Shown here piece by piece: positions 18,667 to 55,516 of a stretch of DNA of 64,000 bases. The DNA is taken from the NCBI GenBank assembly GCA_028282805.1, contig JANQHD010000006.1:62001-126000 (forward strand). The letters are read 5' to 3'. The notes below the pieces were generated by a model. That model saw only the letters and a list, made by a program, of their open reading frames with translations. It was not told where the DNA came from and did not search any database. Position 1 is the stretch's first letter, and each line of letters begins with the position of its first letter. A program made the position numbers and the translations under genes. Source of the stretch: Phycisphaeraceae bacterium (GTDB lineage: Bacteria > Planctomycetota > Phycisphaerae > Phycisphaerales > Zrk34).

Positions 18667-18692
18667 CCGGGCCCTACGGGCCCTCGCTAAAC
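18667..18692. repeat. REP-like palindrome, variant copy
   Basis: The copy reads CCGGGCCCTACGGGCCC then TCGCTAAAC. It differs at 4 of 27 positions (counted over 18666-18692) from the two identical copies at 53151 and 55100. Confidence 0.7.
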
Positions 18693-51809: not shown

Positions 51810-52262
51810 TCAGAACGGACTAAGCACGCAGAAATACGTCTCTTCCCGCGGCTCGATGATCTGTAACGTCTCGTTCGACCGCTCGTCACGGATGATCGTC
51901 TTCTTGGTCGTCACCTGCCGCACGCGGTGCACCGGCTGGCCGGCGCGGTCGATCCGCACCAAACCGTCGTCGTAAAGCTCGGTCGTGTCCAGCGTCGCCT
52001 CGACGAACCGATCCGCGGCGCTACCCGCGTCCACCACCGGCTGCGGCGCATCGGGCACGGTGGGCGCCAGCCATTGCACGGTCAACACCGCGACCAGCAA
52101 CGCCGCGGCGATCGCACCGATCGTGCCCACGGCGCGCGTCCACATCGGCCGGTGCGGCGGCTCGGCCGCATCGAGCACGCGCCGATCCAACCCGGCGCTC
52201 GGCTGGCGCAACGACAGCTCGCCCAGCAGTTGTTCGACCTGTTCTTCGGTGTTCAAAGCCAT
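51810..52262 (-). CDS. Putative anti-sigma factor
   Basis: This 150-residue protein has a short cytoplasmic head (MALNTEEQVEQLLGELSLRQ), one membrane helix (AVGTIGAIAAALLVAVLTVQ) and a periplasmic tail. The His-Cys zinc anti-sigma motif is absent. The role is inferred from position: its ATG lies inside the end of the ECF sigma gene (10-bp overlap), the usual arrangement for sigma/anti-sigma pairs. The tail (TELYDDGLVRIDRAGQPVHR, VRQVTTKKTIIRDERS) has no known domain. Confidence 0.65.
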   Translation of the reverse strand: MALNTEEQVEQLLGELSLRQPSAGLDRRVLDAAEPPHRPMWTRAVGTIGAIAAALLVAVLTVQWLAPTVPDAPQPVVDAGSAADRFVEATLDTTELYDDGLVRIDRAGQPVHRVRQVTTKKTIIRDERSNETLQIIEPREETYFCVLSPF

Positions 52263-52837
52263 GGCTTGAGCCCCGTTTCCAAACGCGCCAGGCCCCGGCG
52301 GTATCGGCTGGCGACCGTCGACAGCGGGGCGCCGATCGCCTGACCGATCTGGTCGAACGTCAGCCCGCCGTAGATCTTCATGACAATCACCTCCCGCTGC
52401 TCGTCGTTGAGTTTGCCCAAGGCCGCGGCCACCGCGTCGCGGCGCTCGGAGGCGTGGGCGTCCTGTTCGGGCCGGCTCGCCGAGAGCAGCATCGACGCGC
52501 CGTCCTGTTCATAGATCGTCTGCCGGGCGGCCCGATCTCGACCGGCCTTGCGGATTTGATCGATCGCCGCGTTGCGCACGACCGAAAACGCGTACGCCGC
52601 CGGGTCCCCCGCCGCGGTCGCCGAACGCGCAAACAGTTTGGCGAACGCCTCTTGCACCGCGTCTTCGGCACGATCCACGCGACCAGTGATCGACAGGGCG
52701 AGTGTAAAAAAACCCTGCCGATGCGTCCGATATAGTTCTTCCCAGACGCTTGGCAAACGCTGACTCGATCCTGGTCGCTGAGAGTGACACGCACGGGCCA
52801 CCCGGTTTTGTGCTGGTTTTGCCGCGACCGACGCCAT
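52253..52837 (-). CDS. ECF RNA polymerase sigma factor
   Basis: This protein has 194 residues from ATG 52837. Region 2 is WEELYRTHRQGFFTLALSIT, with GRVDRAEDAVQEAFAKLFAR, and the region 2.3/2.4 part AAYAFSVVRNAAIDQIRKAG. Region 4 is LNDEQREVIVMKIYGGLTFD and QIGQAIGAPLSTVASRYRRG. It probably directs transcription of the downstream envelope cluster, including its own operon. The N-terminal about 35 residues (MASVAAKPAQNRVARACHSQ) are not conserved-looking, so translation may start later. An open extension to 53248 runs through a terminator and repeats and was rejected. Confidence 0.88.
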   Translation of the reverse strand: MASVAAKPAQNRVARACHSQRPGSSQRLPSVWEELYRTHRQGFFTLALSITGRVDRAEDAVQEAFAKLFARSATAAGDPAAYAFSVVRNAAIDQIRKAGRDRAARQTIYEQDGASMLLSASRPEQDAHASERRDAVAAALGKLNDEQREVIVMKIYGGLTFDQIGQAIGAPLSTVASRYRRGLARLETGLKPWL

Positions 52838-52908
52838 TTTAACGCACCGACGGCGTGCCAAGTGACACACCCGGTCGCACCCGGGGCATTCCTGCAAAAC
52901 CCGCCCAT

Positions 52909-52946
52909 AAAAAAACCCCGCCACAGGGGAGGCAACCTGTAGCGGG
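52909..52946 (-). terminator. Intrinsic terminator of small RNA candidate 1
   Basis: CCCGC plus ACAGG on one side pair with CCTGT plus GCGGG on the other, with one C-A mismatch and an 8-nt loop. Seven Us follow on the minus strand. Confidence 0.85.
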
Positions 52947-53012
52947 ATCAACAGGGAAAGGAGAAGTGGACGTTCTCTCTTGCCGCCCGGCTGGAGGGCT
53001 GACCGGGCGACG
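52909..53012 (-). ncRNA. Candidate sigma-54-dependent small RNA 1 (downstream of amt)
   Basis: A sigma-54-like promoter (53024-53038) points into a gene-free stretch that ends about 104 nt later in a terminator with a seven-U tail. Predicted features are a 5' hairpin (CGCCCGG/CCGGGCG), a linker with ACTTCTCCTTTCCC, whose CUCCUUU matches an anti-Shine-Dalgarno, and the terminator CCCGC-ACAGG fold. The same layout, promoter and length occur in candidate RNA 2 on the other side of amt. The 5' end is set at 12 nt from the -12 element. Reading it as the leader of the sigma gene with an attenuator is the main alternative. Confidence 0.5.
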
Positions 53013-53023
53013 CAATGCCTATT

Positions 53024-53038
53024 ACAACCCGCGTGCCA
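53024..53038 (-). promoter_or_regulatory. Sigma-54-like promoter 1
   Basis: TGGCACG-CGGG-TTGT has the GG and the G of the -12 element exactly 12 nt apart. The flanks TTTGGCACGC and TTGTAATAGGC match those of the amt promoter (TTTGGCACGC, TTGTGATAGCC). The usual -12 C is T, as in both sister promoters. Confidence 0.6.
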
Positions 53039-53150: not shown

Positions 53151-53177
53151 ACCCGGCCCTGCGGGCCGTCGCTAAAC
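53151..53177. repeat. REP-like 27-bp repeat, copy A
   Basis: ACCCGGCCCTGCGGGCC then GTCGCTAAAC. It is identical to the copy at 55100-55126, in the same orientation. The pair brackets amt and its promoter. Confidence 0.9.
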
Positions 53178-53268: not shown

Positions 53269-54846
<1,578 letters not shown>

Positions 54847-54929
54847 GTGATGCCTCCTTCTATCTGGGCAGTTCATGGCTTGCGTCTCCTCGGGCCGGCC
54901 GCACGGGGACCGACCGCCAACCGGCTATC

Positions 54930-54944
54930 ACAAGGGGCGTGCCA
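54930..54944 (-). promoter_or_regulatory. Sigma-54-like promoter of amt
   Basis: TGGCACG-CCCC-TTGT; the GG and the G of the -12 element are 12 nt apart. It predicts a start near 54918 and a leader of about 70 nt to GTG 54846. Sigma-54 control of amt is common in bacteria and fits nitrogen regulation. Confidence 0.7.
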
Positions 54945-55040
54945 AAGGGGCGGGGTCCCGCCGCGAAAGCGGGCAGGGGGCGTTTTAAGGGGCATTGCGA
55001 CCGTGAGGCGGACGAAAACCGATGAAGAAATGGGCACATT

Positions 55041-55072
55041 GCACGAACAGTGCGCGCCGGGCGCGCATTTTT
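55041..55072. promoter_or_regulatory. Dyad and GC-rich palindrome upstream of amt (possible activator site)
   Basis: GCACGAACAGTGC (55041-55053) is a GCAC-N5-GTGC dyad about 123-135 bp upstream of the predicted amt start, a usual enhancer distance for sigma-54 promoters. Canonical NtrC sites have N7, so the match is imperfect. It runs into a perfect 17-bp palindrome, TGCGCGCCGGGCGCGCA (55051-55067), followed by TTTTT on the plus strand. Confidence 0.35.
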
Positions 55073-55099
55073 GTTGAAATCGGCCTTGGTGTGTTAAAA

Positions 55100-55126
55100 A
55101 CCCGGCCCTGCGGGCCGTCGCTAAAC
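55100..55126. repeat. REP-like 27-bp repeat, copy B
   Basis: It is identical in sequence and orientation to 53151-53177, with a start-to-start distance of 1949 bp. It is followed by the region holding small RNA candidate 2. Confidence 0.9.
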
Positions 55127-55218
55127 GGGGCGCAGCGGTGCCCAAATATTGGTTAAATCACGCCGCGCTTGTCGGGCCGGGGGCGACTGCGGGTGTGAAA
55201 AGCCGCCTATGATCCGAA

Positions 55219-55233
55219 TGGCACGCGTCTTGT
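55219..55233 (+). promoter_or_regulatory. Sigma-54-like promoter 2
   Basis: TGGCACG-CGTC-TTGT, with the 12-nt GG-to-G spacing. It is the third such element in 2.2 kb and faces away from amt into candidate small RNA 2. Confidence 0.55.
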
Positions 55234-55244
55234 GGGCGTGTGTC

Positions 55245-55352
55245 TCACGTTCCCGCTACCTTCACCCGCCCTCGGCGGAAGCGGGGCGTGATCGCGGTCC
55301 GTGCGACCGCCTCCTTTATCCCGCCGGGCGTCCAACGCCCGACGGGTTTTTT
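55245..55352 (+). ncRNA. Candidate sigma-54-dependent small RNA 2 (divergent from amt)
   Basis: About 108 nt run from the predicted start to the T6 of a strong terminator, with no credible ORF. Visible structure is as follows: a nested hairpin CCCGCT...AGCGGG with CCGCC/GGCGG inside (about 55252-55274), a hairpin GCGGTC-CGTGC-GACCGC (55294-55310), the single-stranded linker CTCCTTTAT (55311-55319) and the terminator. The nucleotides GCCTCCTTTATC (55309-55320) are complementary to the amt leader GATAGAAGGAGGC with one bulged base, covering the amt ribosome-binding site. I infer base-pairing control of amt or similar mRNAs. The 5' end is predicted only. Confidence 0.55.
55320..55352 (+). terminator. 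Intrinsic terminator of small RNA candidate 2
   Basis: CCCG plus CGGGCGT pair with ACGCCCG plus CGGG around a 3-nt loop with one mismatch. Six Ts follow (55347-55352). Confidence 0.9.
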
Positions 55353-55516
55353 ATACAGGTGTAGGGGTGATTAGCAGTGGCGTGCGCCGGGTCGACGTGG
55401 CATATTCATGGTGATTCGTGCACAACGCGGGCGTTGACCGACGTCTGTGTTGCAACAGCTACCGCCCCGCCTGATCCGCCCCCCGCGATCGCACCACTTG
55501 GAGGTTACATTTCGCG

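What the first reader, a model, noticed from the sequence alone, without database searches (positions are those of the whole stretch)
54852..55320. Small RNA 2 is complementary to the amt ribosome-binding site
GCCTCCTTTATC at 55309-55320 pairs with the amt leader GATAGAAGGAGGC (complement of 54852-54864), 12 pairs with a single bulge covering the AAGGAGG that sets the GTG start. In the RNA the stretch starts at the end of a hairpin and continues as the unpaired linker before the terminator. Eight of the pairs are generic Shine-Dalgarno pairing. The extra TATC/GATA pairs give the match some specificity. A feed-forward or feedback brake on ammonium uptake would follow, with both partners under sigma-54.
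Basis: partly seen in the sequence, partly recalled or inferred. Interest (0 to 1): 0.75.

Follow-up and report, generated by a model that had tools for sequence, protein, structure and literature searches.

The report
Small RNA matching ammonium-transporter ribosome-binding site
Next to an ammonium-transporter gene, a family of Phycisphaeraceae bacteria carries a short RNA element whose unpaired stretch matches the ribosome-binding sites of its own ammonium-uptake genes and has changed in step with them between species, so it probably acts as a built-in brake on making these transporters.

Summary
55309-55320 (GCCUCCUUUAUC) lies in a 3-hairpin RNA (fold z -4.4), nine bases of it as an open linker, and pairs with the amt leader GAUAGAAGGAGGC with one bulge. 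In its own genome the match alone is only moderately unusual (rank 4 of 500 sampled start sites).

The comparative evidence is stronger. Seven of nine Phycisphaeraceae genomes carry the same element (hairpin, CUCCUU-type linker, terminator) beside amt. Five have it in the amt 3' UTR; G007 has it there and as a sigma-54 small RNA upstream, and the window's genus has only small RNAs. In three genomes the linker is CUCCUUUAC and the amt and glnB leaders mostly carry GUAAAGGAG; in a fourth it is CUCCUUCAA and all three leaders carry UUGAAGGAG. These extra bases add nothing to 16S pairing (16S tail CACCUCCUUUCU). So seed and targets changed together across a small nitrogen regulon.

Most likely it is a base-pairing brake that blocks translation of ammonium-uptake genes during the nitrogen response. 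The pairing is inferred from covariation; repression is untested. Exceptions: in G008 the amt match is lost, and the same-genus relative keeps small RNA 1 but shows no small RNA 2 at this locus.

The parts
53269..54846 (-). amt, ammonium transporter (PF00909, E 2e-114), GTG start at 54846
54852..54864 (-). target: amt leader GATAGAAGGAGGC with SD AAGGAGG at 54853-54859
54930..54944 (-). sigma-54-type promoter of amt, TGGCACGCCCCTTGT
   Evidence: conserved in G001
55040..55053 (.). inverted repeat TGCACGAACAGTGC between the divergent promoters; possible activator site, weak (2 in the window, 1.4 expected)
55219..55233 (+). sigma-54-type promoter of small RNA 2, TGGCACGCGTCTTGT
55245..55352 (+). 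small RNA 2 (start inferred about 12 nt after the -12 element): hairpin 55245-55291, hairpin 55294-55310, open linker 55311-55319, terminator 55320-55346 and T run
55309..55320 (+). seed GCCUCCUUUAUC complementary to the amt SD
53024..53038 (-). sigma-54-type promoter of small RNA 1, TGGCACGCGGGTTGT
   Evidence: conserved in G001
52908..53012 (-). small RNA 1 (ends approximate), a sister element; seed ACTTCTCCTTTCCCTGTT identical in same-genus G001; terminator loop GTTGCCTC
52952..52966 (-). seed CTTCTCCTTTCCCTG of small RNA 1

Best explanation
Small RNA 2 is a sigma-54-driven, base-pairing small RNA of about 105 nt. Its open linker CUCCUUUAUC binds the SD region of the divergent amt mRNA and blocks 30S binding, so the nitrogen-starvation response that makes amt also makes a brake on its translation. 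It is one form of an anti-SD terminator element tied to amt in Phycisphaeraceae. In relatives the same element is the amt 3' UTR itself, giving autoregulation, and matches amt1, amt2 and glnB leaders; in the window's genus it appears as separate small RNAs. Shown here: sequence, predicted structure, promoter motifs, conservation, seed-target covariation. Inferred: transcription, duplex formation in cells, repression, and release of the 3' UTR form as an RNA.
For: Structure: fold z -4.4 and -4.6 to -6.9 for relatives. A covariance model built only from G005, G007 and G008 copies finds the held-out amt-linked copies in G000 (sRNA1 E 1.5e-5, sRNA2 E 1.2e-3, the two best hits in 3.9 Mb), G001 (7e-7), G002 (4e-7) and G003 (6.5e-5). 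Seed-target covariation: G003/G005/G007 linker CTCCTTTAC; G002 linker CTCCTTCAA and G002 amt1, amt2, glnB leaders TTGAAGGAG (9, 11, 9 contiguous WC pairs; foreign modules 6). Duplex energies for the G002 leaders are -13 to -17.7 cognate and -10 to -11 with foreign seeds; for the G003/G005/G007 leaders -13 to -18 with their own seed and -7.6 to -13.4 with the G002 seed. Specificity: in G007, 5 whole-genome GTAAAGGAG..ATG sites, 4 of them amt1, amt2, amt3, glnB; in G005, amt1, amt2 and glnB plus one other gene. In sampled AAGGAG starts of G007 the GTA prefix occurs only at the two amt genes (2 of 27); in G002 TTG occurs at amt1, amt2, glnB and one other (4 of 23). The 16S tail CACCTCCTTTCTAAGG does not explain the prefixes. 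RpoN present.
Against: No expression or binding data. In the window's genome the amt pairing needs a bulge, and three other genes (AHSA1 protein, TM198-like, Porin_O_P) have a longer unbulged match. G008 keeps the element but its amt leader AGCAAGGAGA pairs only 6 bp. G007 amt2's 3' UTR copy lost the seed; G004 and G006 lack the element. sRNA2 has no DNA-level homologue in 40 relatives. The GTA-type genomes may share the prefix by descent, so clear seed switches number one (G002) plus the weaker G000 case.
Confidence: 0.7

Rival explanations
1. Generic anti-SD mimicry: the element is conserved for its CCUCCUUU core, which resembles the 16S tail and pairs with any strong SD; amt matches only because it has a strong SD.
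For: The core CCTCCTTT equals the 16S tail; several genes in G000 pair as well as amt with the sRNA2 linker.
Against: The prefixes beyond the core (GTA, TTG) are concentrated in nitrogen genes and switch together with the linker tail. They raise pairing with the element by about 3-10 kcal/mol over a foreign seed but do not extend pairing with 16S.
Confidence: 0.15
2. Cis effect only: in the 3' UTR forms the element pairs with the SD of its own transcript (icaR type) and has no trans action; the window's small RNAs have taken over a different role.
For: Five genomes have the element in the amt 3' UTR, downstream of a matching SD in four of them.
Against: In G007 and G000 the element has its own sigma-54-type promoter, and glnB and amt paralogue leaders elsewhere in the genomes carry the matching prefix, which needs trans pairing.
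Confidence: 0.1
3. The element is mainly a terminator or RNA-stability module, perhaps a protein-binding site, and the complementarity is incidental.
For: The terminator is the best conserved part, with a nearly fixed loop GUUGCCUC of unknown role; one G007 copy keeps both hairpins but not the seed.
Against: The open linker is as conserved as the loop in four copies and its G002 changes are mirrored in three target leaders.
Confidence: 0.05

Closest known systems
NfeR1 / alpha-r14 small RNAs (Sinorhizobium meliloti), PMC10746234
   Same: Anti-SD seeds in unpaired regions; silences a nitrogen-control mRNA (ntrBC) by binding its translation start; reported as Hfq-independent
   Different: Three CCUCCUCCC motifs, lacks a sigma-54 signature, targets ntrB and many transport mRNAs; here one CUCCUU-type seed, sigma-54-type promoter, targets amt and glnB, linked to amt
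icaR 3' UTR / SD pairing (Staphylococcus aureus), PMC3868564
   Same: 3' UTR motif complementary to the SD of the same mRNA, blocking the initiation complex; resembles the amt 3' UTR form in relatives
   Different: Different gene, phylum and motif (UCCCCUG); described as pairing within one mRNA species, not as a separate small RNA gene matching several genes
OppZ and CarZ, autoregulatory 3' UTR-derived small RNAs (Vibrio cholerae), PMC7398697
   Same: 3' UTR element that base-pairs with its own operon to give negative feedback
   Different: Processed by RNase E (not testable here); in the window's genome the element is a separate divergent gene

Membership tests
Trans-acting SD-blocking small RNA | Own promoter and intrinsic terminator in an intergenic region | tested here: met
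   sigma-54-type motif 55219-55233, three-hairpin fold ending in a terminator and T run; sequence level only
Trans-acting SD-blocking small RNA | Accessible seed complementary to the target translation start | tested here: met
   linker 55311-55319 unpaired in the predicted fold; 12 pairs with one bulge to amt
Trans-acting SD-blocking small RNA | Seed and target covary between species | tested here: met
   G002 against G003/G005/G007; G008 is an exception
Trans-acting SD-blocking small RNA | Changes target translation in cells | not testable with these tools
   needs reporter or RNA-seq data
Autoregulatory 3' UTR RNA (OppZ/CarZ, icaR) | Element lies in the 3' UTR of its target mRNA | tested here: not met
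   not in the window's amt 3' UTR; met in relatives G002, G003, G005, G007, G008
Autoregulatory 3' UTR RNA (OppZ/CarZ, icaR) | Released or cleaved by RNase E or RNase III | not testable with these tools
   no RNA data
alpha-r14 / NfeR1 | Three hairpins each with an unpaired CCUCCUCCC | tested here: not met
   one CUCCUUUAU linker; no CCUCCUCCC in small RNA 2
Any Rfam 15 family | Match at the gathering score | tested here: not met
   0 matches in the window; nothing relevant at E 1 at the amt loci
sigma-54 regulon | -24/-12 motif and RpoN in the genome | tested here: met
   transcription itself not tested

The most novel reading that the evidence does not exclude
A lineage-wide private SD code: the nitrogen genes of Phycisphaeraceae carry an SD prefix read by an amt-linked anti-SD RNA, seed and prefixes change together across the regulon, and the element has moved from the amt 3' UTR to independent sigma-54 small RNA genes, splitting its targets (sRNA2 for amt1, sRNA1 for the amt2-glnB leader by a 12-bp match).
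Probability: 0.35. Interest if true: 0.8.

Novelty: new variant of a known kind. Interest (0 to 1): 0.63.

Why it matters
My searches found no described regulatory small RNA of Phycisphaerae (open-access papers only). This locus gives a testable case of a 3' UTR regulatory element and an independent small RNA gene in the same family, and of a seed that changed together with several target sites. It would also add a post-transcriptional brake to ammonium uptake, a step otherwise thought of mainly as sigma-54 and PII control.

Tried and rejected
DNA similarity of sRNA2 in 40 relatives: no homologue. Rfam: nothing. Open-ended RNAduplex ranking over all called starts: dominated by GC-rich chance pairings and doubtful starts, so replaced by linker-only and prefix tests. 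CM hits outside this family (G232, G235, G022 and others) read as ordinary terminators without a CTCCTTT linker and were not used. f6 amt genes are mostly followed by a glnB-type gene and lack the element, apart from one weak terminator-like hit in G017. NtrC-type site between the promoters: present but within chance and not consistent across the family. The exact sRNA1 core was found only in G000 and G001 among 151 genomes. A sigma-54 small RNA encoding a peptide was considered; the only frame noted by eye over the seed (GTG near 55288) has no SD and runs through the terminator.

Full report
OBSERVATION. The coordinates are right. The amt gene (PF00909) lies on the minus strand with a GTG start at 54846 and SD AAGGAGG at 54853-54859. 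The leader GATAGAAGGAGGC is the complement of 54852-54864. On the plus strand 55309-55320 reads GCCTCCTTTATC. The RNA 55240-55354 folds at -55.5 kcal/mol, z -4.4, into two hairpins, a nine-base open linker CUCCUUUAU (55311-55319) and a terminator.

PROMOTERS. TGGCACGNNNNTTGT occurs four times in the 3.9 Mb genome and never in the reversed-pattern control. Three of the four are here: before amt (54930-54944, minus), before small RNA 2 (55219-55233, plus), and before a second RNA downstream of amt (53024-53038, minus), called small RNA 1 here. Over nine genomes of the family the pattern is far commoner than in the reversed control (about 40 against 5). One rpoN is present in G000 and in 8 of 9 genomes. 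Co-regulation is therefore plausible, but transcription itself is not shown.

CHANCE IN THE OWN GENOME. Against 500 SD-bearing start sites sampled from 464 kb, the sRNA2 linker ranks amt 4th (-17.3 kcal/mol), whereas the 16S tail ranks it 20th. GATA(N)AAGGAG before a start occurs at four places: amt with the bulge, and three genes with an unbulged match, which encode an AHSA1-type protein, a TM198-like protein (below the Pfam cut-off) and a Porin_O_P protein. My rough estimate of about 1% for the GATA extension next to a given SD is a hand calculation. Taken alone, the finding would be suggestive only.

THE ELEMENT IN RELATIVES. Looking at amt loci of the family, which is Phycisphaeraceae (G002 contig C288 has the same length, 24438, as JANQQT010000181.1, titled Phycisphaeraceae bacterium), I found the same layout beside amt: hairpin, then CCTCCTTTAC, then a terminator with loop GTTGCCTC. 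It is in the amt 3' UTR of G005, G008, G003 and G007 amt1, and also exists in G007 as a separate sigma-54 RNA upstream of amt1; G003 lacks the GTTGCCTC loop. A covariance model built from G005, G007 and G008 copies only and run over 251 genomes of the order recovers the held-out copies at amt in G000 (both RNAs), G001, G002 and G003; hits outside this family looked like ordinary terminators. Standard pairing with many two-sided changes is seen in the alignment of matches; that alignment is fitted to the model and contains a few spurious rows, so it is support only.

COVARIATION OF SEED AND TARGET. G003, G005 and G007 have linker CUCCUUUAC, and leaders GUAAAGGAG at amt1 and amt2 in all three, glnB in G005 and G007, and amt3 in G007 (G003 glnB does not match). 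G002 has linker CUCCUUCAA and leaders UUGAAGGAG at amt1, amt2 and glnB. Cognate contiguous pairing is 9-11; the G002 leaders with foreign seeds give 6 WC pairs, and the G002 seed on the GUA leaders gives 6, or 8-9 where the SD is GGAGGU. G002 leaders bind their own seed at -13.0 to -17.7 kcal/mol and foreign seeds at about -10 to -11. The GUA leaders bind GUA-type seeds at -12.6 to -20.0 and the G002 seed at -7.6 to -13.4. The 16S tail is CACCUCCUUUCUAAGG in G000, G003 and G007, so neither prefix improves ribosome pairing.

SPECIFICITY OF THE PREFIX. Whole-genome counts of GTAAAGGAG..ATG give G007 five sites: amt1, amt2, amt3, glnB and one unknown protein. In G005 the sites are amt1, amt2, glnB and an apparent oxidoreductase, plus one antisense to the element itself. 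In G003 they are amt1 and amt2 plus several others. TTGAAGGAG..ATG in G002 includes amt1, amt2, glnB and a glutamate dehydrogenase, among unrelated sites and many that are not real starts. In sampled AAGGAG starts, GTA in G007 is found only at the two amt genes (2 of 27), and TTG in G002 at amt1, amt2, glnB and one other gene (4 of 23). A hand-calculated one-sided Fisher test gives about 0.002 for G002 (3 of 3 nitrogen genes against 1 of 20) and about 4e-5 for G007 (4 of 4 against 0 of 25; the G007 test adds two genes found outside the sample). These prefixes were chosen after seeing the sequences and the genomes share ancestry, so the numbers are indicative only.

EXCEPTIONS. G008 keeps the element but its amt leader AGCAAGGAGA pairs 6 bp. 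G007 amt2's 3' UTR copy keeps the hairpins and has lost the seed. G004 (78% complete) and G006 gave no hit. The same-genus genome G001 (85% complete) keeps the amt promoter and small RNA 1, whose seed ACTTCTCCTTTCCCTGTT is identical, but has a different gene where small RNA 2 would be.

SMALL RNA 1. In G000 its stretch UUCCCUGUUGAU matches AUCAACAGGGAA in the leader of the second amt (followed by a P-II-type gene) over 12 bp. In 464 kb this 12-mer occurs only there and opposite small RNA 1 itself. Small RNA 1 also pairs 8 bp with that gene's SD. This suggests that the two RNAs share the work, but it was found after the fact and could not be tested in G001.

MECHANISM. Most likely the RNA covers the SD and blocks initiation. 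In the 3' UTR form it acts as negative feedback; in the window it is a co-induced brake (incoherent feed-forward). Pairing is supported by covariation; repression, timing and RNA processing are inferences.

KNOWN SYSTEMS. NfeR1 silences ntrBC through anti-SD motifs (PMC10746234). icaR mRNA is controlled by 3' UTR/SD pairing (PMC3868564). OppZ and CarZ are autoregulatory 3' UTR RNAs (PMC7398697). All principles used here are known; the combination, the phylum and the joint change of seed and targets appear new. The literature searched is open-access PubMed Central only.

Noticed in passing
window 52908-53038, minus strand: Small RNA 1: sigma-54-type promoter, seed identical in the same-genus genome G001, and a 12-bp match to the leader of the genome's second amt (G000 C47, followed by a P-II-type gene).
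   Followed up: partly
window 55105-55126, 53156-53177 and 18671-18692, plus strand: Dispersed repeat GCCCTGCGGGCCGTCGCTAAAC, three copies in the window (0 expected by shuffling), two of them flanking the amt gene; its role is unknown.
   Followed up: no
L083, L084, L085, L087 near 1540-1550; window 52910-52993 minus: Terminator loop GUUGCCUC (GCCGCCUC in G002) is conserved among most amt-linked elements; in G007 it matches GAGGCAACG in the amt3 leader over 9 pairs with one G-U. Possible second seed or protein site.
   Followed up: partly
G000 C7:82220, C10:983, C44:3980 (L352, L353, L354): Three genes (AHSA1 protein, TM198-like, Porin_O_P) whose SD prefix GATAAAGGAG matches the sRNA2 linker without a bulge; possible further targets.
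   Followed up: partly
window about 52253-52750, minus strand: A sigma-70-family (apparently ECF-type) sigma factor gene lies just downstream of small RNA 1; a sigma factor-like reading frame also follows it in G001, so the order seems kept.
   Followed up: no
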